DNA of 64,000 nucleotides from Berberis thunbergii (lineage: Eukaryota > Streptophyta > Magnoliopsida > Ranunculales > Berberidaceae): assembly GCA_003290165.1 (NCBI GenBank), contig QNQO01002048.1, positions 101,017 through 165,016 on the forward strand. The letters are read 5' to 3'. The position numbers and the translations under genes are program-made. The notes beneath the pieces are model-generated. The model saw only the letters and a list, made by a program, of their open reading frames with translations. It did not search any database and was not told the DNA's origin. Positions 8,426-62,756 of this stretch are shown piece by piece. The first letter of the stretch is position 1; every line of letters begins with the position of its first letter.

Positions 8426-8600
8426 TAGGGCTGAAAATGGTTTGGTTCGGCTCGGGTCGATTTTGGCTAAAACTGCCAATTGAGCCATTATAGTCGGTTT
8501 TATATATTCTAAACTGAAACCGATAGGGTTGTTATACTAACCGAGCCGAAAATGAACCGAATGATTTGGTCGGTTCATTCGGTTTCAAACAAGCAACATT
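8426..8600. mobile_element. hAT element left-end fragment
   Basis: It begins TAGGGCTGAAAATGG, the same terminus as the complete hAT at 53194-54447, and continues with GGTTCGG and CCGAACC-type subterminal motifs. No right terminus was found, so it is truncated. It starts only 9 bp after the target duplication of the previous element. Confidence 0.7.
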
Positions 8601-10960: not shown

Positions 10961-11142
10961 CATACGATTTAACAGGGTTTAGGAAGCAATACAAATTTTT
11001 ATTTCAGTTTATCGGTGACTTTAATCTCCGATCAAAAGGTCTCTATTACCGGGCAGAGTGGGATTTTTAAGGTTTGATTTGCTTTCGTTTTTTTTTTTCT
11101 TTCAGTTTCTAGAGTTTGAAAAGCAAAGAGAGAGGGGAAAAA

Positions 11143-14100
11143 ATGGCAGATCAGCCATTGGTATTGTCTCCGTTACTTGGGTCAGTGGTGGAGAATCTTA
11201 GTTGTTTAATGAAGATGAAGGAATTTTGTGTGTTATTGGGTTTAGAGAAAGATATGAAGAAGCTTTACAGAACCTTGGCTAAAATCAAAGATGTCCTTAT
11301 TGATGCTGAACAGAAACAATTCTCGGATATAGATATTCGAATCTGGCTCAGGGAACTAAGGGATGCCACATATGAGGCTGACGATGTCTTGGATGAATTA
11401 GCCTCGGAGATGAGCAAAGAGGAGGAGGAGGAGGGCGACGAAGATGGCCACAACGACCAAGACTTAGCGAACAAGGTAATTCAAAAGCCTGCTTTCAGCA
11501 AAAACTTTCCTGTTGAGATGGGTAAAAAAATTAAAGATCTGATCGAGAAGTTTGATGATATCGTTTCTGGAAGTTGGAGGTTAAATTTAGAAATGGGAAA
11601 GGCTGGAAATATAGTTGCTGAAAACTGGCGTGCTTATGATTATCTCTCAATTCCTGAACCAAATCAAGTTCATGGGAGGGATGGAGACGTCGAAGACATA
11701 GTCACCCTGCTGCTCAACAATACCATCACCAGTGATATCTCCATTTGTCCCATACTTGGTATGGGTGGATTGGGCAAGACCACTCTTGCCAATTTGGTGT
11801 ACAACGACGAACGCATAGCAAAGCATTTTGAAGTCAGATCTTGGGTTTGTGTCTCTGATAATTTTCGTATTGAAGGCATTTTGAAATCAATGCTAGCCTC
11901 TCTTTCAGGGGGAGGAGGAGGAGATGATGATGATGATGATGATGATCTACAGCGGCGCCTTCAAGTGGAATTGTGTGGGAAAAGATTCTTACTAGTCTTA
12001 GATGATGTATGGGAAAATAACAAAGATGAATGGGACAGACTGAAACAATCACTCTTATGCGGATCAACTAAAGGCAATTTTGTTATTGTCACTACTCGCC
12101 TCGACACAGTAGCATCTGTCTCTGGAACACTTCCCACTTACCCCCTAAAAGCTTTATCCTATGAGGATTGCTGGCTTTTGTTCAAGCAACGTGCTTTCAA
12201 TTTTTTTAGGAAGGAAGATGAACAAGCCTTGGTGGATATTGGCAGGGAGATTGTTAACAATTGTGGAGGCCTACCGCTAGCTGTACTCGCTGTAGGTGGT
12301 CTGCTACACTTCAAGAACAATGTCAAGGAGTGGTTATCTGTCAAAGACAGTGGAATTAGGTATCTCCGTTGCAGCAGCAGTGAAGATAACATCTTATCCA
12401 TCATCAGTTTGAGCTACCACAGGTTGCCATTCTATCTCCGGTCATGTTTTGCATATTGCTCAATCTTTCCAAAAGGCCATACTATCATTAGAAATGAACT
12501 GATTCAGCTGTGGATTGCAAATGGATTTGTGCAAGCCAATGGATCAATGGACTTGGAACTTGTCGGAGATGCTATCTTCAATACATTGCTATGGAGATCC
12601 TTCTTCCAAGACACTGAGAAGGACAAAGATGGCAGGATATTGACATGCAAAATGCATCACCTCGTGCGCGACCTTGCTTATTTTTTTTCTGTAGATGTTG
12701 GAAAAGCAGGGAATATCACCAGAAGTATCCGTCATGTCTCACTGGTTTCCAGCAACAGCAAACGACATTCTGCTTCTGTTGATTCTATCCATAGGTCCAA
12801 TCCAGGTCTACGCTCACTTATCATGTTCAGTGACCAGCCATCCACTTCCAAGAATTCTCAATTCATCTTCTCACTTTTACTGTTAACCAACTTACGTGCA
12901 TTGGATTTGAGCAGTACATCAATCGACATCTTACCAGACTCTATTGGTAAACTGAAGCACCTTCGGTATCTCAACCTGTCTGTCACTCCCATCAGGTCGT
13001 TACCTGTTTCTATTTGTGAACTACGAAATGTGCAGGCACTATACTTCAAGAGGTGTGACAAACTCAAATCCTTGCCCAGAGACATGGGAAAAATAACTAG
13101 CCTCAGGCACCTAGACATACATGGATGTAGCGCGTTAACTGGGATGCCGATCGGGTTAGGGAAGTTAACTTCCCTCCATACCTTAAGTTTCTTCATTGTC
13201 GGATTTGACAGTACTGGATGCAGTATCAAGGAGTTGCAAGGGCTGAACCTCCTAGGAGGAGATTTGGCAATAAAACAGCTCGAGCATGTGAAACATTCAC
13301 CAGAAAGCAAAGCAGCCAACCTGTTGGGTAAGGAAAATCTTCGCTCCCTATCGTTATTATGGTCACAGCCTCCAGATTCGCAAGAAAATGCGGAAGAGGT
13401 AATTGAAGGCCTCCAACCTCACTCTAATTTAAGACGGTTGCATGTTGAAAACTATGAAGGAATAACCTATCCAAGTTGGTTCAGAGATTCATCAGTCCCA
13501 AATTTGGTAGAGATCACACTCTCAAAATGTACAAGATGTGAGCATCTCCCACCAATTGGGAAGCTACCTCGTCTAAAGGTTTTGAAGTTGTCATCAATGG
13601 ATTCTTTGAAATTCATTGATGATGAAGTTTATGGTGAAAACGACGTGAAAGGATTCCCGTTCCTTGAAGAGCTTGAATTGGTTTCAATGCCCTGTTTGGA
13701 AGGATTGTCGCCATGGTATCTAAGAGGTGAAACCGCAGCAACAGAACATCCACCGCGTCTCCCTTGGCTTAAAAAACTGTTTGTTCACGATTGCCCCAAA
13801 CTGACAGAAGTTCCATTGTCATCCTCTCTCTTGTCTGTACAGTTGAAGAAAGCCAATGAAATGGTGCTGGGATCGTTGCAAAACCTCCCTTGCCTTTCGT
13901 CCCTTGAAATTGGTATGTTTGATGAGTTGGAATGTTTTCCACAAGGAACGTTAAGAAACCTCACGGCTCTGCAGCAATTGAAGATTGAATCGTGTGAAAA
14001 CCTTAATGCTCTGCCTTCAGAACTGGAAACTTGCACTGCGCTGACACATTTAAAGATTGAAGGATGCAAGAAGCTGGTTTCATTGCCAAACGGATTGGGA

Positions 14101-14484
14101 AACCACCCCTCCCTCAAATCTCTCAGTATTTTTTTTGGTGACGATTCAGAAGATTTTATGGATTTGCCTGATTGGATAGGTACCTTGACTTCACTGCATA
14201 GTCTTACTATTGATGGGTGCAAGAATCTGAAAGTGTTGCCAAAAGGTATGCAACACCTGAACGCTCTTCAAGAACTGCAGATTGTTGGATGCCACACCGA
14301 ACTAGAGAGACAATGCGAAAAGGACAAGGGAGAAGACTGGTTCAAGATTGCCCATATTCCCGATGTTGTAATCACTGCCAAGCGAATGCAGATTAGCTCT
14401 TCTGGAAACATTGTAAGCAGTGCCGGACCTACTAAAGGGCGAGGGGGCAGCTCAACTTTTAAAATAATTTTATTATATATTTAG
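11143..14484 (+). CDS. CC-NB-ARC-LRR disease resistance protein (RGA-like)
   Basis: An intact, intronless 1113-residue intracellular immune receptor of the coiled-coil NLR class, expected to sense pathogen effectors and trigger defence. The first in-frame ATG, at 11143, has a good context (AAAAAATGGC). Domains: Rx-type coiled coil about 1-170 with the EDVID-like ADDVLDELA at 79-87; NB-ARC from about 176 with P-loop GMGGLGKTT at 206-214, kinase-2 LLVLDDVW (Asp287, Asp288), GLPL at 376-379 and RNBS-D CFAYCSIFPKG from 435; then LRRs from about 540 to 1075. Oddities are MHH in place of MHD (504-506), an eight-Asp run at 261-268 coded by a GAT microsatellite, and a last stretch of about 20 residues that appears to read into repeat DNA. 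The length is typical for the family. Confidence 0.97.
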   Translation: MADQPLVLSPLLGSVVENLSCLMKMKEFCVLLGLEKDMKKLYRTLAKIKDVLIDAEQKQFSDIDIRIWLRELRDATYEADDVLDELASEMSKEEEEEGDEDGHNDQDLANKVIQKPAFSKNFPVEMGKKIKDLIEKFDDIVSGSWRLNLEMGKAGNIVAENWRAYDYLSIPEPNQVHGRDGDVEDIVTLLLNNTITSDISICPILGMGGLGKTTLANLVYNDERIAKHFEVRSWVCVSDNFRIEGILKSMLASLSGGGGGDDDDDDDDLQRRLQVELCGKRFLLVLDDVWENNKDEWDRLKQSLLCGSTKGNFVIVTTRLDTVASVSGTLPTYPLKALSYEDCWLLFKQRAFNFFRKEDEQALVDIGREIVNNCGGLPLAVLAVGGLLHFKNNVKEWLSVKDSGIRYLRCSSSEDNILSIISLSYHRLPFYLRSCFAYCSIFPKGHTIIRNELIQLWIANGFVQANGSMDLELVGDAIFNTLLWRSFFQDTEKDKDGRILTCKMHHLVRDLAYFFSVDVGKAGNITRSIRHVSLVSSNSKRHSASVDSIHRSNPGLRSLIMFSDQPSTSKNSQFIFSLLLLTNLRALDLSSTSIDILPDSIGKLKHLRYLNLSVTPIRSLPVSICELRNVQALYFKRCDKLKSLPRDMGKITSLRHLDIHGCSALTGMPIGLGKLTSLHTLSFFIVGFDSTGCSIKELQGLNLLGGDLAIKQLEHVKHSPESKAANLLGKENLRSLSLLWSQPPDSQENAEEVIEGLQPHSNLRRLHVENYEGITYPSWFRDSSVPNLVEITLSKCTRCEHLPPIGKLPRLKVLKLSSMDSLKFIDDEVYGENDVKGFPFLEELELVSMPCLEGLSPWYLRGETAATEHPPRLPWLKKLFVHDCPKLTEVPLSSSLLSVQLKKANEMVLGSLQNLPCLSSLEIGMFDELECFPQGTLRNLTALQQLKIESCENLNALPSELETCTALTHLKIEGCKKLVSLPNGLGNHPSLKSLSIFFGDDSEDFMDLPDWIGTLTSLHSLTIDGCKNLKVLPKGMQHLNALQELQIVGCHTELERQCEKDKGEDWFKIAHIPDVVITAKRMQISSSGNIVSSAGPTKGRGGSSTFKIILLYI
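11923..11946 (+). repeat. Coding (GAT)8 microsatellite in the NLR
   Basis: Eight perfect GAT codons preceded by GGA repeats give a Gly-rich then poly-Asp stretch between RNBS-A and kinase-2. This region of the nucleotide-binding domain is usually a short linker before a basic or hydrophobic helix. Confidence 0.95.
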
Positions 14485-21700: not shown

Positions 21701-22631
21701 TAGGGGTGGACAAACGGGTTGAGAAACTGCGGATCCAAACCGAACCGGACCATTTTACTCCAAACGATTCGGTTTTTATTTTTAAAATTATGAAACGATT
21801 ATGTTCGGTTCCGGATTCGTTGTTAAACGGTTCGGTTCCGGTTCCTAAATTTTTGTTTAAAACGGTTCGGTTCCGATAATTAAACAGTTAGATAATAAAG
21901 TTAAAACTAGAGCTAGTCTCACAACAATGCCTATATGACCGAGTTGTTAAGGAGACATATTTGAAATCTGTTGGGCTACGCCCGCGCAGGTTTGAACCCA
22001 GCTGGCATTTTAATTTATTACTTTTTTTTTTCTTCATTTAATAGAAGTCATATATTCGTTTTGGTTTTTTGCATCTTCCATTGAAACGGAAAGACACCCT
22101 CACAAGCAATGGATTAGACGCAGCCCAAAGACATCCAACTTGCTCGTCGAATCAGGAGTGAACGTGCTTGATTGTTTGTAAAATGAGCTATGTATTGTTA
22201 AGATATTATTAAGTTTGATTTCACTTTAAGAATTATATATAACTGTATCCTATTGAGATAGATAGATATCTATTAATGAATTGTTGTTTATTGAATTTGA
22301 CATTTTCTATCTTTCACATGTTGTGTGAGATGAATGAGTTGTTGTTTATCAAATTTGACACTTTACTACTTGTGCAGTTATGCTAGGGTGGTCTAATATT
22401 TAAACATTCCACATCTAGTGGAGGAATAGAAATAATTCGCGGTGAGATGCATCTTCAAGATTAATTGCATAATATTATACAGGAACCGTTTGGAACCTAC
22501 AACGGTTCGAGTTAGGTTCGGTTCCAACGTTTAAAATGAAGAAAGCGATCCGAATCGGAGCCGTTAAAATTTAAACGGTTAGAATTAGATTTCTCAAAAT
22601 TTGGAACCGATCCGAACCGTGTTCACCCCTA
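21701..22631. mobile_element. Non-autonomous hAT element, 931 bp
   Basis: The left end TAGGGGTGGACAAACGG and inverted right end (TAGGGGTGAACACGG on the minus strand) form the TIR. The flanks GTCGCTCA (21693-21700) and GTCACTCG (22632-22639) are an aged 8-bp duplication. The related copies at 29381 and 32845 show the uninterrupted AAGTCGCTCGCACAC. Subterminal GGTTCGG and CCGAACC motifs fill both ends. The middle carries a tRNA-Ser-like sequence. Confidence 0.88.
21929..22009 (+). pseudogene. tRNA-Ser(UGA)-like sequence inside the hAT element
   Basis: The order matches plant tRNA-Ser: D arm TGACCGAGTTGTTAAGG, anticodon loop region TTTGAAATC with a TGA anticodon, long variable arm GGGCTACGCCCGCG, and T arm GCAGGTTTGAACCCAGC. 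The T loop is TTTGAAC where TTCGAAC is normal, and the acceptor strands do not pair in the standard register. It is therefore a decayed tRNA gene or a tRNA-derived SINE head, not a working tRNA. A TTTTTTTTT run follows at 22023. Confidence 0.75.
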
Positions 22632-37295: not shown

Positions 37296-37809
37296 TAGGG
37301 GTGGGCAATGTCGGTTCGGTTCGGTTTTGAGTCCAGAACTGATTTCATTCGATTTGCCCAAAACTCAAAATGAAACCGAATTTTGTATTTGTAAACCGAT
37401 GAAATTGGTTGAACCGAATTTTCAGTTCGGTTCGGTTTGGTTCGGTAGGGCCAAATTTTCGAGCTCAAGCACTTGAAAGGTTTTCATTAAAACATGCCCA
37501 ATTTTTTACAGGATTAATTTTTTGGCAAATCCAATTTTAACCCAAAATTGAAAACTAAGAGAGAATGGCGTGATTCAGTGCAACAGGGTGCACTGCAGTG
37601 CATTTGTTGCACTAATCTAGTATTGACACCTACCTCTTTATTTATTTATATATATTTAATTAATCGGTAGGTTCGGTTATTATTCGATCGGTTTAAAATC
37701 ATAGACCAATTTCAAATTGTTTATAATTGGTTCGGTTCGATTACCAAACCAAATTTAAAAACCAATTCGACCGATTAACCGAATTTAAATCGATTTTTGG
37801 CTGCCTCTA
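37296..37809. mobile_element. Non-autonomous hAT element, 514 bp
   Basis: The left end TAGGGGTGGGCAATG and right end, inverted, TAGAGGCAGCC form short TIRs. The flanks CTTTTTAT and CTTTTATG resemble an aged 8-bp duplication. Both ends are packed with GGTTCGGTTCGG and CCGAA motifs. Confidence 0.75.
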
Positions 37810-48095: not shown

Positions 48096-51000
48096 TCAAG
48101 CATCAAAGCCAGAATAGATTCCGCTCTCCCTTAGAAGCCTCTTCTCTTCCTCGACATAATTCTTCCCCCTACTTGCCTGACCAAGATCTCTCTTCCTCTT
48201 CTCCTTTTGCGAGAAAGAAAGATTCTTCTCCCTCTCTTGCTCGTTTTCGAGCTCCCTTTTCCTTCTCTTCTCTCTCTCTTTCTCCTTTTCTAGCTCCTTT
48301 TCCCTTCTCGTTTGCACGTTCATCAGTTGCTCACCGGCAGTTAATGCAGCTTTAGTTCTCTGTTGCTCTTCAACAGATTCTTCAATCTCCTTCCCTGCAT
48401 TATCCTTGCCAGTGGACCATGACCAGTCTCGCTCCTTCTCATCTTCCTTTGGTGGAGGCACTTTCAACACTGAGAGACCACCTCTGTATCCATGTTTGTT
48501 CAAGGCGTGAAAGTCTATAGCTCCACCCTTTTGCTTTGCTACCTTGACTGAACTCATACATACCACAGAATTTTTAGACAAGATATTGTTCAATATTGAC
48601 ACAATTAACATAAAATATAACAATTATAGTCATAACTAAATGCATTTCATCTTCATTCAAATACACTCTAAAATTCTTAATTCAGAACGTATATTTCAAT
48701 CAGTGATGAAGAAGACTAATAAATAATAAACCATCAAAACACTCACAAGCTAGGTTCCTCTGGCTCATATGCAACCCCATGCCCTTTTCTCAGAATGAAT
48801 TTAGTGCTACAAGCAACCCCCTCTCAGACCTTAGCATATAACATACTACATATCCAGAATGAACTGAGGTTTATTTGGTTGTACAGACATACTGGGAATA
48901 CAAATAAAAGATAAACTAAATCATCATTGAAACAGTTTCAACGTTTATGATTATCAATTGAAATTTAATGAATACTGGAAATTCAATTATATGAACAAAA
49001 GAAAAGAAATGAATGACCTATATCAGGAATAGTAAAAAAATCATTAAGCCCATTATCAGGAAACATGATTATCATTCAAACCATCTCAAAGACAAAGTTC
49101 ACCCAATCAATAAACAGACTAGAAATTCAATCAGGAACAAAGAAAAGTTTGATTAAACCATATTTGAAATAAATCATATTGTATGCTGGAATTTTTTGGT
49201 GCACATCCATCACATGTATCGATTTCACACAATCGTATCATATCAGGTGTATTCTATTTACCAATCTTGTATCTCCTCCAAGCTTTTAGGCTTAAACAAA
49301 GACCAACTTGAAAGGGGTTTCGAGGAGTTTTTACAGAACAAAAAAATTCCTCTCTAAGATGATCAAACTGAACAAAAATCAACATATATAATTTAGTGGC
49401 ACTGAAATAACAAAACCCCAAACCAAATAAAATTTTAGAACCACTTCTAAGGTAATCCATATCAAACTCATACAAATTATAATCTTGTATGAAATAATCC
49501 AACCAAACTAAATCAAATGTAAGTACGCTAAAAGCGTATCTCCTAGAGAATTGTCAACTTCATAAGAAGAGAAATTTTTTAGCAATACTTTGGCAAAAAC
49601 CTCAAACATATTGAGCTTTGGCCTATCTGAGGAGCATAAAAACTGCTCCATGAAATTTGGCTTTTGAGCTTGTCCATCGGAAATGCTCTTAAATCAAGCT
49701 AATAAAATAAACCAAATTTGAAGCGATAACATACAGTACGACAATCTTTATTTATTAAGAAAAGCATAAACAAGAAAAACAATCTACATTAGAACTTGAG
49801 ATCGGAACCCTGAAACTCAAGTTCATTCATCTCATCTAAACTTGTGTCTCTTTTATCAAATAAATTTTCCCAATCACCAACCTTACCTTTCCTGAAGTAA
49901 GTACTATATTCAAGGCCAAAAGTAATTAAGCCAGTCTTATTCGCCTCAAGATTAGCCATGTTTTCAAAGCTACACAACTTCAAAATCTCCTCCACAATTC
50001 CATTCCTCACCTCATCTTCATCAAAAGGACACCCAATAAATTTTAGCCAACTTAACCACCTCTGCAAATGGCTCTTCCTGCATTTGTTTGCACTTTGAGA
50101 AATAGTATTGTTTGTACCACAATTCTGCAGCAGGTGACGGACACACGGGGGAGGAACCTCAGGCTCTACACGTAGGGGGAATGGCACGTGCTGAGCACGA
50201 GGAACTAAAGGCGGGAACTTGTCTTGGGAGGGAGTATGTTTGAAGGAAGGTTCCCATCACGTGCTCGGCATGTGATCTCCCCTTCCTTCAAAACTGAGGA
50301 AAGCCAGCTAGGTGGTAATTGGTATGATGTCTTCGACAGAGTGATGTAAGCAGCCACCTGTAATGGGTCAAAGCAAATAAGAAGCAAGCACAGTGGAGGA
50401 ACTTGAGGATGAATCACCCAATGAGGAACGGGCACGAGGTTACTTCCGATACCGAGTAGTCGGTCAACTATGTTGGATAGCGATTGAAAACCACTTCCAA
50501 CGGGATCCAAGGAGAGCAGCAGCCAAACCCATCTGTGCTATTAATGCGGCCGAAAATCGATCAAAAGCGCTATGCGGAGTTGGACCGAAACGCACAGGGT
50601 CAACTCGGTTGGCATTAAGCGGAACCAGTAAAATTGGTCAAAAACGGTCAAAAATCGGCGAGTCAGCGCTTAATCGGCCCAGCTGACTCGCCGATTTGTC
50701 GGTCTGTATATATGAAAGAAAAAAAAGAAAAAAGAAAACCTAATAGATCTCTTGGTTTTTTGCAGCTGACTGAAGAAGGAGCGACAACTGAAGAAGAAGA
50801 AAAAGAAGAGAAGTAGGTCTGAATCATCAACCTCTCTTCCTCCCTTCCTTCAATCGAATCAACAAGTAGCTTGCTGCTGAATCGATCGGTTGCTGCTGAA
50901 TCGATCAATCGAAGACGACGAAAATATTGGCCGCTAAGTTCCCAAATCAGGTACGCCTTCCCTCTCCTCCCAGTCCATTCGTTTCTTCCATTCGCTTCTT

Positions 51001-54000
51001 CCCTCTGCTGAATCGACCAATCGAAGAGATCCCATCCATTCGTTTCTTCCCTCTTCAAACAAGAAGCGAATGGATGGGATCTCTCACTCTCTCACAACTG
51101 TTTCTCTTCAAATTGCTAGCTTACAGACAATACATACAAGTTATACTTGTAAGACCCAACGCAACACAAACAACTGTATAATAAAGCATGGAATGATTAA
51201 AAAAAAAGAAAAGGATCTCATGTTAGTTAGATATAGAGATCTATTTCATTGTGAAACTCCATTTCTCCGAATTTTCCATGTTGAACATTGTTTCTTATCC
51301 TATTATTATACCTAAATTGCATTCATACAGTGAAAAATAAGAGAGTGAAACACTCTCAATAATACAAATAATATGACAGATGAAACACTCTCAATAATAT
51401 GACAGAGATGAAACATCATCCAATTCCCTGATTATGCTTATGATATGAATGTGTTTCATCTCTGTTGGGTGAGGTTACTTGATAGTTGTTGTTCCAACAG
51501 AGATGAAACACTCGCTGATTAGATTATTTTTCATCCCTGATTATTTTACTTATTCTTGTTTCGTATTTGTATTTTGTAGATTATATCGTCGAGAGGTTCA
51601 AATCCTTTTTCCAATTCAACATCGTCAAATTCCTTGAAAAGGGCATCCGAAGATATGACATGGGAATGGCCATCCACGTAACTATAAGTCTATAAGTGTT
51701 CCAACCGGCAGTTGCAAAATTAAATTCATTTGATTAATTAGTAAAATAATACATGAGTCATGACTATGATTACATATTTACATCTTTTTGATTAATTATT
51801 TATTTTGTAATCTATGACTATGATTAAATTTTAAAAATATATACTTTGAAAAAATTGTCCGCATAATTCCGCTTAATCCCACATAATTATGAAAAATCCG
51901 CATTAACGGCATAGAAACCCATGGTGCCATGTGGATTCAGGACAAACATAGAGACTTAGTCAACTAGGTAAGAGGAAGACAAAAGTAAGAGGAACAAAGT
52001 TTAGCCATGTCAAGGGAAAGGGATTGACGCTGCAAGTAGGTTACTCGACAGAAGATCACACATTACATGATTCTCCATCAGATCATCAAATGCAAAGTAC
52101 GTACAGGTAGGTGAGCAAATCAATATATATAGAACTCTTAGACCAACGAGGAAGGGGTTGGATTCTAAGGGAACTATAGAGAGAACTCACCATCTCTTAA
52201 TCCATTTAGATTCATTATTGGATTGGTTTTCTTCTCGGTTTCATTACTCGACTGGTCTATGACTTGAGCTTTGGAAGCTCATAACACGGAGTTAGTCTGT
52301 GTTTGTGCGTGCTTTGCAGGCGTGAGAGAGCGATGAGCAAAGGAGAATGAAATTAGGGTTGTTTCAAAGATCTCAAGAACGTAGTGTGCATCTCGAGGAG
52401 CTTTAGGAGTAACTTAACAAACATTGACGGCGTCCATGGGATAGCCCAGTATACTGTTTAGAAGGTCGGGACTTCGTAATGGTGGTCAACAACAGGAGGT
52501 AGGAGAAAGTAGTGTGAAACCCTCAGCTCGACAAGAGGCTCTACGTATTCAAAAGGATGAGATGATAAAGCTGATGAGGAGGATGAAAGATCAAACAGAT
52601 GCTCTGCAAAAAGAAAACAAGGCTCTGAAGTGTATGTTTTAAACTAGCACGTAAGACAGAGCGAATAACTAATATGGTGATGGTTGAATGCAAACTTTTA
52701 GGTTGCTTGAAGAACGCTCCAATGATGACATGAACAAGTGTAGGGCAAAGGAACATGCTTGTTGAGGTGGAAACTCCATTTACCCTTCGAAAGTCGGTAA
52801 AAGGGGAAGGATGTCGTTTCCATCTCCATGAGATAATAGGCATCATACCATGCTAGTGAATAATTAATATTTAATCCTTTCCTCGCATGCTATAGTTTAC
52901 TCTAAAACTACCCTAAGATCCTCCTATGATACATAGGAGTGGCACCAATTCTAACTGTTTGAGCTTTTAAAGTAGTTGGTTGTGTGAAATGGTATCGGTA
53001 TGAGTGGTCTTCAACTCTTCATTTCAATTCTCTCCAAAGAATCCTTAGAAAGAGAAAGAAGAACTATTACTTACAGGTTGATAATGGGTGGCACCTTGTA
53101 TGTCAGATGCAGCAGAATTGCACACTACCTTGTGTTTATGAATCTATCTAGGGCGCCACTTTGATATATGCAAGTGACACCTTCTCTAATGAGTAGGGCT
53201 GAAAACCAAACCGACGGTTCGGTTTTTCGACCAAACCGAAAACCGAACCGACTAGTATCGGTTTTGTTTTTTCCCAACCGAAACCGAACCGATTATATGT
53301 AAAACCAAACCAAACCGCCTATTGATTTATGTAAACCGAACCAAAACCCAAAATGTGAATTCTTTTGATAATGTATTAGAGACCAATTACCATTCAAGAA
53401 TATCAAGAAGAAGAAAAAAAAAACTAACCCTAATCGAATTGTAAAACTGCAACACCAATTGCACTTGTGTAAGGCCGAGCGGCCATGTAGTATTTGCCCA
53501 GGGGTTGGTCAGCTTCAACTAAGATGTCCATGGTTTGTCCAGAAGTTATCATGATGAAGTTGGTTTTCAGAGATTTTATGTAGGAACCATCTCTTCCAAC
53601 TACAATGAGGTTGTGTTGAGCAATTGAGAAGAAGGTCTCTATGTTCATTTCTGCATTCACCACACAGAGCAGATACCTTTTTCATACAAAACACACACAA
53701 AGAAAGAGAGATTTCGAACCGAGATGGAGAGAAGAAGAAAGGGAAGAGAGGTTAGACAGAGAGACGAAGATGAGCGAACAAATCGAACCCACAGAGTGAG
53801 TGTTTGATGAAAAGCTGAAGAGAAGGCGGAGATTTGGTCGGAAGGATAGACAGAAAGACGGAGATTTCTCCTTGCGTCCTCCCTCTCCCCTGTGTGGTCT
53901 CTCTCCCTCGATCTCTATCTGTATCTCGGTCACCTTTCTAAATACCTTTCTGTATCTCTCTCTGTATTTCGCAGTGTCGGTGACCGAGTGGGAGTGATTG

Positions 54001-55023
54001 TGAGTGGGAGTGATTTCTCCTTCGACCCCAAATCTCTTTATGTATCTCGGTCTCTCCATCATACATCTACACTACCTTCCACTTTCTAGATGAAATTACA
54101 TTGATCTCTTTATGTATCTCGGTCTCTCCATCATACATCTACACTACCTTCCACTTTCTAGATGAAATTACATTGGAACCAAGAAAGAGTTCAGGGAGAG
54201 AGAGAAAATAATGGAAGAGAGAGATTTAAATTAAGAATAATATAAATAAAATTTACTATATATACATAGGTATCGGTTCGGTTCGGTTTTTTCGGTTAAA
54301 ATCACTTACAAACCGAACCGACCCTATCAGTTTCAAAATGTATCAAACCAAACCGATCCGAAACCGATTTTAAAACCGAACCGATCGGTTCGGTTTTGAT
54401 CTGTTCAGTCGGTTTAATCGGTTTTTCGATTTTTTTGTTCAGCCCTACTAATGAGTCATGTTTTAGAGTTAATTATTTACGCAATCCAGTTTTTTTCTGT
54501 TTTCACAAGAAAAAAAAACACTATTCTCTTAAGCCTCTCACACTCTAAATGCAAACTTGCATCAAGAAAAGGAATAAGTACGTAGGCTTGTCAATCAAAA
54601 ACGAAAAGTATCCCTCACTTTGCATGTCATCACCCAACAGACCCCAGAAATAGAGGTGAAGGTGGTAAACAAATTCTCAATAACTTAGATGTACAACCCA
54701 CAGACAATTGCAAGTGGGGAGGCAACACAACCTTCATAAATTTCCACGAATGCACTTGCCCAATTTAGGGAAAAATGTAAATGTTTTGACAGATTATCTA
54801 CAAAGGAAGCAAAACAAAACCCTAAATCCACAAAAAACACAAATTCATTTAATTCAAACTATCTATGCAAAATCAACTAAGATTGAAACAAAATGAGTTA
54901 AATAAAAATCTGACCTTTAGAAATAGAATTAGAATCAGAGTCCGAGCCCGAATCGGAAGAAGAATCATCCGATGATGATGACGATGAAGCTTTCTTGTTC
55001 TTCCAAGGCATCGTCTTCTTCAT
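48096..55023 (-). CDS. Small Ser/Asp-rich, coiled-coil protein of unknown function
   Basis: Two exons on the minus strand: 55023-54915 and 48547-48096. They join in phase (K-G|TC, giving SNSISKVKVAKQ) through a GTCAGA donor and a TTCAG acceptor, for 186 residues. A second in-frame ATG at 55011 gives MPWKNKKASS and may be the true start. The N-terminus is a Ser/Asp-rich acidic tract. The middle (about residues 90-160) is a long Lys/Glu/Arg coiled coil. The C-terminus DLGQASRGKNYVEEEKRLLR followed by ESGIYSGFDA looks like a conserved module. The composition suggests a nuclear protein. I do not recognise the family. The intron is 6.4 kb and full of transposons and gene fragments. Confidence 0.8.
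48548..49788. other. Intron, 3' part
   Basis: AT-rich intron sequence with no recognised element. The minus-strand frames here show no family. Confidence 0.4.
49789..50075 (-). pseudogene. Cytosolic sulfotransferase C-terminal fragment
   Basis: The minus strand reads FIGCPFDEDEVRNGIVEEIL, KLCSFENMANLEANK and YFRKGKVGDWENLF and ends EFQGSDLKF then a stop. This is the last third of a plant cytosolic (flavonoid-type) sulfotransferase, which uses PAPS as sulfate donor. RKGxxGDW is the conserved PAPS-binding region IV. The N-terminal two thirds, with the PAPS loop and catalytic His, are missing. It sits inside the intron in the same orientation as the host gene. It is a fragment, though its frame is intact. 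Confidence 0.85.
50076..50532. other. Intron, middle part
   Basis: More GC-rich than its surroundings, with CACGTG-type words (50188, 50258). Possibly retrotransposon-derived; no family recognised. Confidence 0.35.
50533..51914. mobile_element. TIR element with 8-bp target duplication, 1382 bp
   Basis: The left end CTGTGCTATTAATGCGG and the inverted right end CTATGCCGTTAATGCGG match at 14 of 17 positions. AAACCCAT is repeated at 50525-50532 and 51915-51922. An 8-bp duplication suggests hAT, though the terminus is unusual. Inside are a 14-bp perfect inverted repeat (50653-50696), repeated GCTGAATCGATC words and repeated GATGAAACACTC words. No transposase was seen. Confidence 0.75.
50653..50696. 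repeat. Perfect 14-bp inverted repeat
   Basis: AATCGGCGAGTCAG (50653-50666) and its exact complement (50683-50696) are separated by 16 bp, a strong hairpin inside the TIR element. Confidence 0.9.
51915..53193. other. Intron segment with possible gag remnant
   Basis: At 52518-52640 the plus strand reads RQEALRIQKDEMIKLMRRMK and then QTDALQKENKALK, a coiled-coil peptide of the sort seen at the start of plant gypsy gag proteins. The surrounding 52.2-52.5 kb could be leader or LTR sequence. Evidence is weak; no LTR pair seen. Confidence 0.35.
53430..53676 (-). pseudogene. Laccase fragment captured in the hAT element
   Basis: The minus strand reads YLLCVVNAEMNIETFF, SIAQHNLIVVGRDGSYIKSL and GQTMDILVEADQPLGKYYMA, and ends GVAVLQFD at a stop. 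This is the second cupredoxin domain of a plant laccase, a secreted multicopper oxidase of lignin polymerisation. About 80 of roughly 570 residues remain, without copper ligands. The frame is open, with few changes from the family pattern (INAAMN is VNAEMN here), which suggests a recent capture. Confidence 0.9.
54032..54175. repeat. 72-bp tandem duplication inside the hAT element
   Basis: ATCTCTTTATGTATCTCGG begins at 54032 and again at 54104, and the two 72-bp copies appear identical or nearly so. This is consistent with a recent event. Confidence 0.95.
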
Positions 55024-55884: not shown

Positions 55885-56470
55885 CTAAGGACTATGAATT
55901 CGCGAAATTTTGTTTTCTGAGATCTCGAAATTTAAAGTACTGAAATCAAAAAGACGGAGAAGTACATCCTTTCTATGAGTTATTTCTATTTTTTCGTAAA
56001 TTTCGGCATTTCGTGTAAACCCTAAAAAGTTATGAAGCAAATTACATTTTTCCAAGCCGAAATATTTCGTATTTTTTTGTAGATTCGACATTTTTGTGTA
56101 AAACCCAAAAATTATGAAGAAAATTGCACGTGTATGAATACTTGTGGTACTCAGACTTCATTTAATGTATTTAATGTGTTTATTAAGTTAATTTACTTGT
56201 ATCTTACTAATTAACATATTTATATATGTTTAATGTATTCTTAAAAATTTTACATTTTCTAAAATCAGAGTAACGAAATTAACTCTAACAGAAATTCTAA
56301 ATGACGAGGAAACAGGCGAGGGAGGGGGTGCAACCCTCCATCCCCCTCGAGATGCATGATGGCACACATCTCAAGGGAAATAGAGGGTTGCACCCCCTCC
56401 CTCGCTCGTTTTCTCGACAACAGGAAGGGTTCTAACTCTAAAGACGAAATCATAATCCTTGCTTGGGACA
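55885..56470. repeat. GAAATTTCG-rich repeat, paralog of 26.2-26.8 kb
   Basis: It shares ordered words with 26230-26805 and is interrupted by the foldback MITE at 56289-56432. Confidence 0.7.
56289..56432. mobile_element. Foldback MITE, 144 bp, with 9-bp target duplication
   Basis: Ends CAGAAATTCTAAATGACGAG and, inverted, GAACCCTTCC. The arms GCGAGGGAGGGGGTGCAACC and their complement form a hairpin. TAACTCTAA is repeated at 56280-56288 and 56433-56441. The related site at 26757-26800 reads GAAATTAACTTAAAA then ACGAAATCACAAT with no insert. Confidence 0.93.
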
Positions 56471-58365: not shown

Positions 58366-59280
58366 ATCAATTAGCGATGGCCTAGAACCGTCGCTAAATT
58401 CTTTAGTGTTTAATTTTTTTTTCAAAAAAACCAATTAGCCACGGTTTTTTGCCGTCGTTAATAAAAAATCTAAAACTTAGCCACGGTAAATTTCCGTAGC
58501 TAAATTATTTAGTGTTTAATTTTTTTTTCAAAAAACCAATTAGCCATGGTTTTCGCCGTGACTAATAAAAAAATCTAAAATTTAGCAATGGTAAATTGTT
58601 GTAGCAAAATTCTTTAGTGTTTAATTTTTTTTCAAAAAACCAATTAGCCACGGTTGTTTGCGTTGCTAATAAAAAAAAAACTTAGCCACGGTTTTTTGCT
58701 GTAGCTAAATTATTTAGTGTTTAATTTTTTTTTTCCAAAAAAACCAATTAGCCACGGTTTTTTGCCGTCGCTAATTGTTTTTAATATATATATATTTTTT
58801 TATTTGTAAACCTTAGCGACGGCACTTCTGTAAAAACTTAATTCAAATGCTTTTAGTGTTTAATATTTTTTCCAAAAAAACCAATTAGCCATGATTTTTT
58901 GCCGTCGCTAATTGTTTTTTTATATATTTAAAAAATCCATTAGACCGTAGCTAATGAATTTTATTTGTAAAATCTAGCGACGATTTTTTTGCCGTCGCTA
59001 AATGTTATATATATATATAAATCCATTAGCTATGGTATGCTATCGTAGCTAATTATTTTTATTTGTAAATCTTAGCGACGGCTTAAATTACCGTCGCTAA
59101 TACAAGAATTAGCGATAGTTTAAGCCGTCGCTAAATATTTTGCGATGGATTTTTATAATTATGGGTTGAAATAGTATCGAAAGCAATTAGTGACGGTTTT
59201 TGCCGTCACTATCGTATAATTAGCGTCGTTATCAAAAAACCGTCGCTAGTTTCCGTAGCTATTAAAGTTTTTTTGTAGTG
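58366..59280. mobile_element. CACTA right end, GCGACGG subterminal repeats (copy 1)
   Basis: Dozens of inverted pairs of the type TTAGCCACGG...CCGTCGCTAA, spaced by TTTAGTGTTTAATTTTTT segments, end in TTTTTTTGTAGTG at 59280. It uses the same vocabulary as 4858-5161. The long array of inverted sites is where a CACTA transposase would bind. Confidence 0.85.
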
Positions 59281-59514
59281 AACATAAAAAAGGAAATTAA
59301 ACAAACAATCTAGATCTACCCATATGTTTTTAAAAATTAAGAAGCATAACAATAACATAGGTACACAAAACAAATCATTTTTATCTACCAACAGTCCGAT
59401 CACAAAAAACTTTTGGTGAAAAATTAATTATCATTATGACTTGCATTGAAATAATACTGATATATGAATAGAATATAATAATGAGTAGTGAAATTAAAAT
59501 TAAAATCTACCCTG

Positions 59515-59575
59515 TGACCTGATACCATCCGTCACTGCTCAACCACTGAGTCATCATACCTTTGGCCAAAATGAA
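59515..59575 (-). other. tRNA-like A-box segment, possible SINE head
   Basis: The minus strand reads TGACTCAGTGGTTGAGCA followed by GGTATCAGGTCACAGGG, resembling A-box and approach-to-B-box sequence of tRNA-derived SINEs. Its copy lies at 62990. No clear B box follows. Confidence 0.3.
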
Positions 59576-59766
59576 TACCCTTGTTATTGATAAATGCAAC
59601 AATCTATAATTGCATTCATAAGTTATTTATTGTGTAAGAATTAATTCAAATGTTTTTTATTTCTCTATGCACTCTTCATTCGCATTGATCTAGTGGGAAA
59701 AGATAATTTATTTATTTTTACTTTATGTATAATTGTTACTGTATTTGGTAACAGTTTTTTTTCCAG

Positions 59767-59899
59767 AACACGAGCTTCTTCTTGACATGCTTCTGGAGAA
59801 TGTCTCTGATGATGAGGAACCTGCTTTTATTTTCAAAAAATAGAACCATCAAAGGCAAAAATTTACAGATTCTCAAACATTCTCAACAGACTACTAAAG
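59767..59899 (+). pseudogene. Degenerate RRM exon, CELF/BRUNO-like
   Basis: After a TTCCAG acceptor it reads EHELLLDMLLENVSDDEE, a decayed version of the EYELSVGMLPKDVSDAEV exon found 200 bp downstream. It is a tandemly duplicated exon with stops. The copy at 63240 is similar. Confidence 0.6.
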
Positions 59900-59973
59900 G
59901 TATTCAGGTCTTATTCTTGGATTTTATATTGTTCTAAGAATACCACCTTTATAAGTCCTGCAATGTTTTCCAG

Positions 59974-60574
59974 AATACGAGCTTTCTGTTGGCATGCTTC
60001 CAAAGGATGTCTCTGATGCTGAGGTGTCCTACCTTATTTTCTAAATATGGAACCATCAAAGAGTTGCAGATTCCCAAAGATTCTCAAGAAGACTAGCATA
60101 GGTTCTGTGGTTCAGGTCTTATTCATTGTTACTTGAAGGGACAAAGAAATCTATTAAATATTGTGTAGTTATAGTGTAAAATTGTATTAATTTATTTTAT
60201 TTGAAGGTTAAATGGTTCAAATAACAAAAAGAAAGAAAAAAAGTTCATGGTGAAATAGATATATATATATATATATTTCATTATCTATCTTGAATCATTG
60301 TAAATCCAATAAGCTGCATTGCAGATAATTAATTCGTTACTTAATTAGAGTATTGGACTAATGCTAAGATTTTTATATTGTTCTAAGAATATTGCATCAT
60401 TTACTCATGAATTGGATAACGTAGTATTGAATATTACCATTTTCTATAAAACAGACATATGATTGGTTGTGTTTTGTTTCAATTAATAAGATAGGATGTG
60501 CCTTCTTAAAATATGAAACTGAAAAGCATGCGGCTGCAGCCTTAAAGGCTATCAATGGGAACCATAAGATAAAG
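59974..60574 (+). pseudogene. CELF/BRUNO-like RNA-binding protein RRM fragment, copy 1
   Basis: Exon 59974-60101 encodes EYELSVGMLPKDVSDAEVS and then, after a 1-base insertion, the FSKYGTIKELQIPKDSQE type block, with another inserted base near 60089. Exon 60495-60574 encodes GCAFLKYETEKHAAAALKAI and NGNHKIK up to a GTTCGT donor. These are the two halves of an RRM of plant BRN1/BRN2-like proteins, which bind mRNAs for decay. GCAFLKYE is the RNP1 motif. Two frameshifts make this copy non-functional. Confidence 0.8.
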
Positions 60575-60712
60575 GTTCGTGTGATATATTTTTATTTGTT
60601 TTCAAGATTTCTTGGTTGAAAATTTTATTTCAAATCCTAGCATGTCGTCTTGACTTCTGATAAAATTCATTTACAAATAACAAGCGGAGAGAAATGTATG
60701 GTCTTTTTTATT

Positions 60713-60788
60713 TTTTGAGGAAAGTGAACAAAATACAAAAGGAATCATTCCTATATCAAGGAATGCCAAGATACCATGAAAGTGTCAC
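60713..60788 (-). pseudogene. LINE 3' end fragment
   Basis: CTATATCAAGGAATGCCAAG and the surrounding 70 bp match the LINE tail at 37990-38105, beginning from a T-rich run. This is a second insertion of the same LINE family, severely 5' truncated. Confidence 0.65.
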
Positions 60789-60879
60789 GCGGATCGGTGA
60801 CGTGTTTTTTTTTTAGCTAAATTTTTTGGCCATTATTGACGGTTGAGATGAGGTTTCACGCGGATCGGTGACGTGTTTT

Positions 60880-61375
60880 TTTTTAAACAATTAGCGAAGG
60901 TTTCTTGCCGTAGCTAAATTCTTTAGTGTATAATTAAAAAAAAAAATCAGTTAGCAACGGTTTACTACCGTTGCTAATTAAAAAAAATCTAAAACTTAGC
61001 CACGATTCATCGCCGTAGCTAAATTCTTTAGTGGATAATTTTTTTTTCAAAAAACCAATTAGCAACGGTTTTTTGCCATCGCTAATAAAAAAATCTAAAA
61101 CTTAGCCACGGTTTTTTGCCCTAGCTAAATTCTTTAGTGCATAATTTTTTTTTTCAAAAAAACAATTAGCGACAGTGTTTTGCCGTCGCTAATAAAAAAT
61201 AGTATTATTTTTTAAAAAAAGAATTAGCGACTGTGTTTTGCCGTCGCTAATATAAAAATAAAGTTATTTTTTAAAAAAATATTTAAAATAATGTTATTTT
61301 AAAAAAAATCAATTAGCGACGGTCTTTTACCGTCGCTAATATAAAAATAATGTCAATTTAAAAAAAATTAGCGAG
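60880..61375. mobile_element. CACTA subterminal cluster without a terminus
   Basis: The same inverted GCGACGG, CCGTAGC and CCGTCGCTAA motifs as the neighbouring clusters, but no CACTA or TAGTG end. Just upstream the motif CACGCGGATCGGTGACGTG is duplicated (60788 and 60860). It could be the damaged left end of an element whose right end is at 62756. Confidence 0.65.
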
Positions 61376-61959
61376 TAGCAAATAATTCATATAAATTTGT
61401 ATTTAAAAATAATTAATGACATACTAACCAGGTACCCAACTTTTCTTCTGACATTTTTTCATATAAATTTGTATTTAAAAATAATTCATGTGATGTATCT
61501 GTCCTTTTCTAAGAGCAACCACTGATAATACCAATGAGTGAATGACTTTGTTCAAGAAATCTTGATTGGTTTAACATACATAGATCATCTCAATTATTAC
61601 AAGATTGAAAGTTGATTGAGTGGGGAGTCAGAAGGTGTGCCCATGAATGACTGACCAAGACTAAACTAAAACCAAGCTAGACTCGCCTCAAGATCAAATT
61701 TCGAGTTAAGAGGTTGGTTCAGACTAGGCAATTACCATAAAGCAGACATTGAAATGCATTAAAGAGTATCACAAAAGCAAAAAAGAATTATTCTAAACAA
61801 TTTATCAATTTCTTTACCTATTTATGCATTTGATTCCCCTGACTACAATTTTTGAAAATCGTTGCTGTATTTTTATGCACTAATATCTTTTTATCAGTTA
61901 AGTTGTCGTTGGCTAAGTTATTGATATAAAAATAATGTTATTTAAAAAAAATCAATTAG

Positions 61960-62403
61960 CGACTGTACTAGGCCGTCACTAAATTCTTTAGTGTTTAATT
62001 TTTTTTTTCAAAAAAACCAATTAGCCACGGTGTTTTGCCGTCGCAAATAAAAAAAACTAAATCTTAGCCACAGTAAATTGTCATAGCTAAATTCTTTAGT
62101 GTTTAATTTTTTTTTTCAAAAAAACCAATTAGCCACGGTTTTTCACCGTCGCTAATAAAAAAATATAAAACTTAGGAACGGTAAATTGCCGTAGCTAAAT
62201 TCATTAGTGTTTAATTTTTTTTTCCAAAAAAACCAATTAGCCATGGTTTTTTGTCATCGCTAATTTTTTATTATATATATATATATATTATTTGTAAACC
62301 TTAGCGACGACACTTGTGTAAGAACTTAATTCAATTGCTTTTTAGTGTTTAATTTTTTTATCCAAAAAAACCAATTAGCCACGGTTTTTTGCCGTCTCTA
62401 ATT

Positions 62404-62456
<53 letters not shown>

Positions 62457-62756
62457 TTAAATCCATTAGCTAATGAATTTTATTTGTAAAACCTAGCGAC
62501 GGTTTTTTGCCGTAGCTAAATGTTTATATATATATATTAAATCCATTAGCTACGGTATGTTATCGTTGCTAATTATTTTTATTTGTAAATCTTAGCGACG
62601 GCTAAATTACCGTCGCTAATACAAGAATTAGTGACAGTTTTAAGGCGTGTCTAAATATTTTGCGACGGATTTTTTGCCGTCGCTAATCATATAATTAGCG
62701 ATGGTATCAAAAAACCGTCGCTAGTTTCCGTAGCTATTAAGGTTTTTTTTGTAGTG
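61960..62756. mobile_element. CACTA right end, GCGACGG subterminal repeats (copy 2)
   Basis: A counterpart of 58366-59280, ending TTTTTTTTGTAGTG at 62756 and followed by the same AACATAAAAA flank. The shared flank shows the two ends arose by duplication, not by two insertions. A TA and T-run microsatellite interrupts it at 62406-62459. Confidence 0.85.

What the first reader, a model, noticed from the sequence alone, without database searches (positions are those of the whole stretch)
53194..54447. Laccase exon captured by a non-autonomous hAT element (Pack-hAT-like)
The element has matching TAGGGCTGAA ends, dense GGTTCGG subterminal sites and a perfect CTAATGAG duplication, so it moved as a unit. 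Inside is an open 80-residue piece of a laccase cupredoxin domain. Gene capture is well known for Pack-MULEs and reported less often for plant hAT elements. The intact TSD, open frame and near-identical 72-bp duplication suggest recent activity.
Basis: partly seen in the sequence, partly recalled or inferred. Interest (0 to 1): 0.75.

Follow-up and report, generated by a model that had tools for sequence, protein, structure and literature searches.

The report
Transposon carrying a laccase gene fragment
A short plant jumping gene of the hAT type carries a scrap of a laccase gene and sits inside the intron of an unrelated conserved gene; it is a well-formed example of a known but uncommon phenomenon.

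Summary
Window 53194-54447 is a 1254-bp non-autonomous hAT-type element: 10/10 terminal inverted repeats (TAGGGCTGAA), a perfect 8-bp target-site duplication (CTAATGAG) and GGTTCGG/CCGAACC-type motifs clustered at its two ends. Inside, on the minus strand (53433-53681), is a genuine laccase piece: TIGR03389 laccase, 2.9e-24, profile positions 195-270 of 539, probably reaching 283 across an in-frame loss of about 7 codons. No laccase was found in the flanking frames scanned. It is a stretch of the second cupredoxin domain, not shown to be a whole exon, and too short for an enzyme. The 83-codon open frame is uninformative: 72% of shuffled elements have one as long. New: the element lies in a 6367-bp intron of a conserved plant gene (UPF0690/C1orf52-like), with the laccase piece in that gene's sense direction. 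Parent laccase gene, copies elsewhere in the genome and transcripts could not be tested. Gene capture by plant hATs is in print (grapevine 2008, maize Ds 2011, Pack-hAT 2022). Verdict: real, new member of a known kind, modest interest.

The parts
53186..53193 (.). Left target-site duplication CTAATGAG
53194..53203 (+). Left terminal inverted repeat TAGGGCTGAA
53194..53363 (.). Left subterminal region with GGTTCGG/CCGAACC-type motifs (14 positions in 170 bp)
53433..53681 (-). Laccase piece, 83-codon open frame, laccase profile positions 195-270 (probably to 283) of 539; no stop inside
53682..54210 (.). Filler of unknown origin with CT-rich and GA-rich stretches; no Pfam match above a curated cut-off in any of the 12 other open frames of 50 codons or more that lie wholly inside the element (one weak match, QRPTase_C, E 0.29)
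54032..54175 (.). Two adjacent identical 72-bp copies
54264..54447 (.). Right subterminal region (19 motif positions in 184 bp)
54438..54447 (-). Right terminal inverted repeat
54448..54455 (.). Right target-site duplication CTAATGAG
54915..55023 (-). Predicted exon 1 of the host gene (MKKTMPWKNKK...SISK), phase 1, donor AAG|GTCAGA
48548..54914 (-). Predicted intron (6367 bp) that contains the element, 467 bp after the donor; a small further exon inside it is not excluded
48096..48547 (-). Predicted exon 2 of the host gene (UPF0690/C1orf52-like, conserved in plants)

Best explanation
A non-autonomous hAT (Ac/Ds-like) element, of the Pack-TYPE kind, whose middle was filled with host DNA including about 245 bp of a laccase gene. 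Shown: element ends, target-site duplication, motif-rich ends, the laccase piece, its absence from the flanks scanned, and the position in a predicted intron of a UPF0690-like gene with the laccase piece in sense. Inferred: it was moved by a hAT transposase supplied from elsewhere that binds the repeated GGTTCGG-type motifs, cut it out and inserted it here with an 8-bp staggered cut; the filler was gained earlier, most likely by template switching during repair of an excision gap; the piece has no enzyme function now and is normally removed with the intron.
For: TIR 10/10 and TSD 8/8; motif clustering at both ends; laccase homology 2.9e-24 inside the element, nothing laccase-like found in the flanks; no transposase match in any of the 13 internal open frames of 50 codons or more; no internal copy of the terminal repeat with fewer than 3 mismatches, which gap-filling predicts better than fusion of two neighbouring elements; exact 72-bp tandem duplication in the filler, compatible with repair synthesis; host gene exons join in phase and homologues run through the junction; two more hAT-like elements with similar motifs in the window.
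Against: No second copy of the element and no parent laccase gene was seen, so capture is read from one locus. The rest of the window was not scanned for a transposase. Internal vestiges of a second element could have been lost, so the gap-repair route is only favoured. The in-frame loss within the piece rests on about 3 bits. Four of nine aligned homologues (P0005, P0008, P0012, P0045) carry more residues at the exon junction, so the two-exon model may be incomplete.
Confidence: 0.87

Rival explanations
1. Fusion route: two neighbouring hAT elements flanking a laccase gene or pseudogene were mobilised together by their outer ends (the model proposed for Pack-TYPE elements in PMC8903248), so the filler is one contiguous chromosomal segment.
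For: Proposed for Pack-TYPE elements of the DNA superfamilies, with hAT examples (PMC8903248, passages seen).
Against: No internal remnant of the terminal repeat with fewer than 3 mismatches; the laccase piece is only about 245 bp and the other 12 internal open frames show no laccase domain, though non-coding laccase sequence such as an intron would not be seen this way.
Confidence: 0.25
2. Chance structure: a laccase pseudogene scrap happens to lie between unrelated inverted repeats, with no transposition as a unit.
For: 4 of 300 Markov sequences of window size hold some 10-bp inverted repeat with an exact 8-bp duplication.
Against: These ends also have the TAGGG... hAT form (form recalled) and dense motif clusters just inside both of them with one motif position in between.
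Confidence: 0.02
3. Exonisation: the captured piece is spliced into some transcripts of the UPF0690-like gene, giving an in-frame fusion that ends in the laccase piece.
For: Same strand as the host gene; an AG ending at 53651 (GTGAATGCAG|AA) would join exon 1 in the laccase frame and add 73 residues.
Against: Phase agreement is one in three by chance; at least 8 of 67 AGs in the element, this one included, give extensions of 73 residues or more; the 17 bases before this site hold only 8 pyrimidines. No transcript data.
Confidence: 0.05

Closest known systems
Pack-hAT elements of maize (Pack-TYPE transposons; PMC8903248, passages)
   Same: Non-autonomous elements with hAT ends and a piece of a coding gene inside; one example (Zm00001d013112) is an insertion at a host gene locus
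   Different: Here probably a eudicot (closest named host-gene relatives are Ranunculales); different end sequence and cargo; clustering with related copies, required there, is untested here
Gene-bearing Ds2 and Ds-l4 elements of maize (PMC3260210, passages)
   Same: hAT elements with 8-bp duplications, filler DNA and gene fragments (2 Ds2 and 9 Ds-l4 reported); modal length of Ds-l4 about 1 kb
   Different: 11-bp Ac/Ds ends and AAACGG subterminal repeats instead of TAGGGCTGAA and GGTTCGG
Hatvine-6 elements of grapevine (PMC2528002, passages)
   Same: hAT family whose variable regions often match genic sequences of the host
   Different: They share a transposase coding sequence; none was found here
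Pack-MULEs (recalled)
   Same: Capture and carriage of gene pieces
   Different: MULE ends and 9-bp duplication (recalled); here 8 bp and short repeats

Membership tests
hAT superfamily (non-autonomous) | 8-bp target-site duplication | tested here: met
   CTAATGAG 8/8
hAT superfamily (non-autonomous) | Short terminal inverted repeats of hAT form (T/CA...G) | tested here: met
   TAGGGCTGAA 10/10; the hAT form itself is recalled
hAT superfamily (non-autonomous) | Repeated subterminal motifs at both ends | tested here: met
   14 and 19 positions at the ends, 1 in the middle
hAT superfamily (non-autonomous) | Mobilised by a hAT transposase with matching ends in the same genome | not testable with these tools
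   own-genome search not answered (15 calls, last)
Pack-TYPE (Pack-hAT) | Piece of a host protein-coding gene inside the element, no transposase | tested here: met
   TIGR03389 2.9e-24; no transposase match in the 13 internal open frames of 50 codons or more
Pack-TYPE (Pack-hAT) | Captured piece stops inside the element ends | tested here: met
   (8 flanking frames, window-wide motif scan and tblastn)
Pack-TYPE (Pack-hAT) | Parent gene elsewhere in the genome | not testable with these tools
   protein searches scored nothing; the genome search unanswered
Pack-TYPE (Pack-hAT) | Related copies with the same ends | tested here: inconclusive
   within the window only: one further exact TAGGGCTGAA with similar motifs at 8426, no second end found

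The most novel reading that the evidence does not exclude
The element delivered a laccase piece, in sense and in phase, into the intron of a conserved UPF0690-like gene, and some transcripts join exon 1 to it, so that a hAT element is making a new fusion protein in a lineage outside the grasses.
Probability: 0.05. Interest if true: 0.6.

Novelty: new member of a known kind. Interest (0 to 1): 0.3.

Why it matters
In the papers I saw, gene capture by hAT elements is documented in maize and grapevine. A clean single-locus case, probably in a Ranunculales-like plant, with intact ends and an intronic position in sense with the host gene, extends that record and gives a concrete locus in which to test how hAT elements acquire filler and whether captured pieces enter transcripts.

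Tried and rejected
Parent laccase: two padded protein searches gave 7 and 6 word-sharing candidates and no hit at E 0.001; the number of leading X was typed by hand and the region may have been out of register, so one search put the piece first. The tool needs shared 5-residue words, so this says little about presence or absence. Viral contigs: the laccase piece (1 pattern match, not a relative) and an end pattern gave nothing; plasmids in protein mode, nothing. Rfam: no match at gathering score in the window. Last exon of the host gene against solved structures: nothing. Open frame as evidence of recency: rejected; in a simulation the frame survives 10% neutral divergence with probability 0.46 without indels and 0.07 with them. 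Exon limits of laccase genes: no paper found; my recollection that plant laccases have a long exon covering this stretch was not used. Literature search for laccase with Pack-MULE listed one paper, not opened; the literal string TAGGGCTG was swamped by unrelated papers.

Full report
Anatomy. The element runs from 53194 to 54447 (1254 bp). Its ends are TAGGGCTGAA in inverted orientation, 10 of 10, and diverge soon after. It is bordered by CTAATGAG on both sides, 8 of 8. A search of the whole window for an exact 10-bp inverted repeat flanked by an exact 8-bp duplication, at 80-5000 bp and with low-complexity hits excluded, returns this element alone; 4 of 300 Markov-1 sequences give one or more. 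Without the complexity filter the window gives 10 hits, the other nine having A-run or AT-run ends. The GGTTCGG/CCGAACC-type motifs occur at 14 positions in the first 170 bp, one in the 900-bp middle and 19 in the last 184 bp. This is the build of a non-autonomous hAT element. Of the 13 open frames of 50 codons or more wholly inside it, all were scanned against Pfam: the laccase one matches, the other 12 have no match above a curated cut-off, one giving a weak QRPTase_C at E 0.29. No transposase is among them.

The laccase piece. On the minus strand, 53433-53681 encodes 83 residues without a stop. It matches Pfam Cu-oxidase PF00394 (1.8e-19), NCBIfam TIGR03389 laccase (2.9e-24, positions 195-270 of 539; 85.8 bits, far below the cut-off of 558.9 for a complete laccase, as expected of a piece) and, among solved structures, laccase 6klg best (8.6e-15; that this is the maize enzyme is recalled). 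After SAIGV the sequence goes to AVLQF, where laccases have several more residues before a similar stretch. With 0, 4, 6, 7, 8, 9, 10 and 12 X inserted there the TIGR03389 score is 85.8, 86.1, 87.2, 89.0, 87.2, 86.5, 86.0 and 85.4 bits, and 85.4 and 85.5 for two scrambled tails behind 8 X. With 8 X the solved-structure match rises from 58 to 61.5 bits and runs to the end of the stretch, and the Pfam score from 70.8 to 71.2. The maximum at 7 and the extension to position 283 suggest an in-frame loss of about 21 bp; the gain is only about 3 bits. The piece lies in the second cupredoxin domain, which carries no copper ligand (recalled), and covers about a sixth of the protein, so it is not an enzyme.

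Does the piece stop at the ends? tblastn of the piece against the window returns itself (7e-55) and two chance matches (E 2.0 and 7.3). In the six-frame motif scan the two domain-2 motifs occur once each, both in the piece; the looser histidine patterns give 7 hits, six elsewhere (one of them in the right flank at 54653) and one overlapping the piece in another frame, none in recognisable laccase context by eye. Eight open frames between 52.0 and 56.7 kb outside the element had no laccase domain; other flanking frames were not scanned.

Recency. Perfect TSD and an exact 72-bp tandem duplication (54032-54175) are compatible with youth. But 0 of 72 differences allows up to about 4% divergence between copies at 95%; an open frame of 83 codons or more occurs in 72% of 500 shuffled versions of the element; and the simulated frame survives 5% divergence with probability 0.69 without and 0.25 with indels. 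Two other hAT-like elements in the window have imperfect duplications, so this one is plausibly younger than they are; no age can be given. The laccase piece is poor in CpG (observed/expected 0.28, against 0.57 and 0.64 in the 1-kb flanks), which I do not interpret.

Position. A gene on the minus strand spans the element. Predicted exon 1 (55023-54915, MKKTMPWKNKK...SISK) ends in phase 1 at AAG|GTCAGA; exon 2 (48547-48096) begins after TTCAG and continues in phase. The joined protein (its first 115 residues scored, start taken four residues late) finds 102 proteins at E up to 0.001 among 580 candidates; every one that carries a source name is from a plant, several called UPF0690 or C1orf52 homologue; the best named are Macleaya cordata, Coptis chinensis and Aquilegia coerulea. 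In an alignment of nine of these 102 with the prediction the homologues run through the junction, the three Ranunculales ones with about the same spacing; P0005, P0008, P0012 and P0045 have extra residues there and P0095 is divergent. A small further exon is therefore not excluded, but the element lies between the two exons found, in a 6367-bp interval, 467 bp after the donor, and the laccase piece has the gene's orientation. The finding as given does not mention the host gene.

Mechanism. Shown: unit structure, cargo, its absence from the flanks scanned, intronic sense position (gene model predicted). Inferred: a hAT transposase in trans, binding the repeated subterminal motifs. For the origin of the filler, repair of an excision gap with template switching fits the short cargo, the tandem duplication and the absence of internal terminal-repeat remnants (best internal match 3 mismatches in 10); the authors of PMC3260210 cite errors in repair of excision breaks as a suggested cause (passage), while PMC8903248 argues for joint mobilisation of neighbouring elements (passages). 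I favour the first at roughly two to one; neither is proved. A join of host exon 1 to an AG just before 53650 would be in the laccase frame and add 73 residues, but at least 8 of 67 AG sites in the element allow extensions that long and the site is weak, so exonisation is only a possibility.

Known or new. The term Pack-hAT occurs in 2 papers of the library: PMC8903248, read in passages, and PMC8277862, seen as a listing only. Maize Ds2 and Ds-l4 elements with gene fragments (2 and 9) are described in PMC3260210 (passages), and hAT Hatvine-6 elements with genic filler in PMC2528002 (passages). A 2026 review of gene capture in plants does not hold the words hAT or laccase in its main text (PMC13317346, term search). 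No paper reporting a laccase piece in a hAT element was listed by the searches made; most listed papers were not opened. This is therefore a new member of a known kind, with an unproven extra in its intronic sense position.

Noticed in passing
21701-22631: Another non-autonomous hAT-like element, 931 bp, ends TAGGGGTGGACAAA / TAGGGGTGAACACG, duplication GTCGCTCA/GTCACTCG with 2 mismatches, with GGTTCGG-type motifs.
   Followed up: partly
37296-37809: A third hAT-like element, 514 bp, ends TAGGGGTGGG / TAGAGGCAGC, flanked by CTTTTTAT and CTTTTATG, with GGTTCGG motifs (read).
   Followed up: partly
8426-8595: Exact TAGGGCTGAA followed by similar motifs (TAGGGCTGAAAATGGTTTGGTTCGG); no partner end found, perhaps a truncated relative of the laccase-bearing element.
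   Followed up: partly
55886-56461: Possible small transposon: CTTGGGAC duplication 8/8 with imperfect inverted ends TAAGGACTATGA / CAAGGATTATGA, just upstream of the UPF0690-like gene.
   Followed up: no
49789-50256 (minus): Sulfotransferase piece (PF00685, 4.4e-10) in the same intron and orientation as the laccase piece: a second gene fragment or pseudogene there. A neighbouring frame at 50024-50158 looked similar by eye but has no Pfam match.
   Followed up: partly
11113-14484 (plus): Open frame of 1123 codons for a disease-resistance protein (Rx_N, NB-ARC, winged helix, LRR).
   Followed up: no
58393-62620: Several tandem arrays (units of 53-137 bp, often 105-108) built on TTAGCCACGG...TTGCCGTCGCTAA-like palindromic cores.
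   Followed up: no
53740-53805 (plus): Inside the filler, a purine-rich stretch leads to ATGAGCGAACAAATCGAACCCACAGAGTGAGTG, which looks like a leader with a start codon and a donor-like GTGAGT; perhaps a piece of a second gene (by eye).
   Followed up: no
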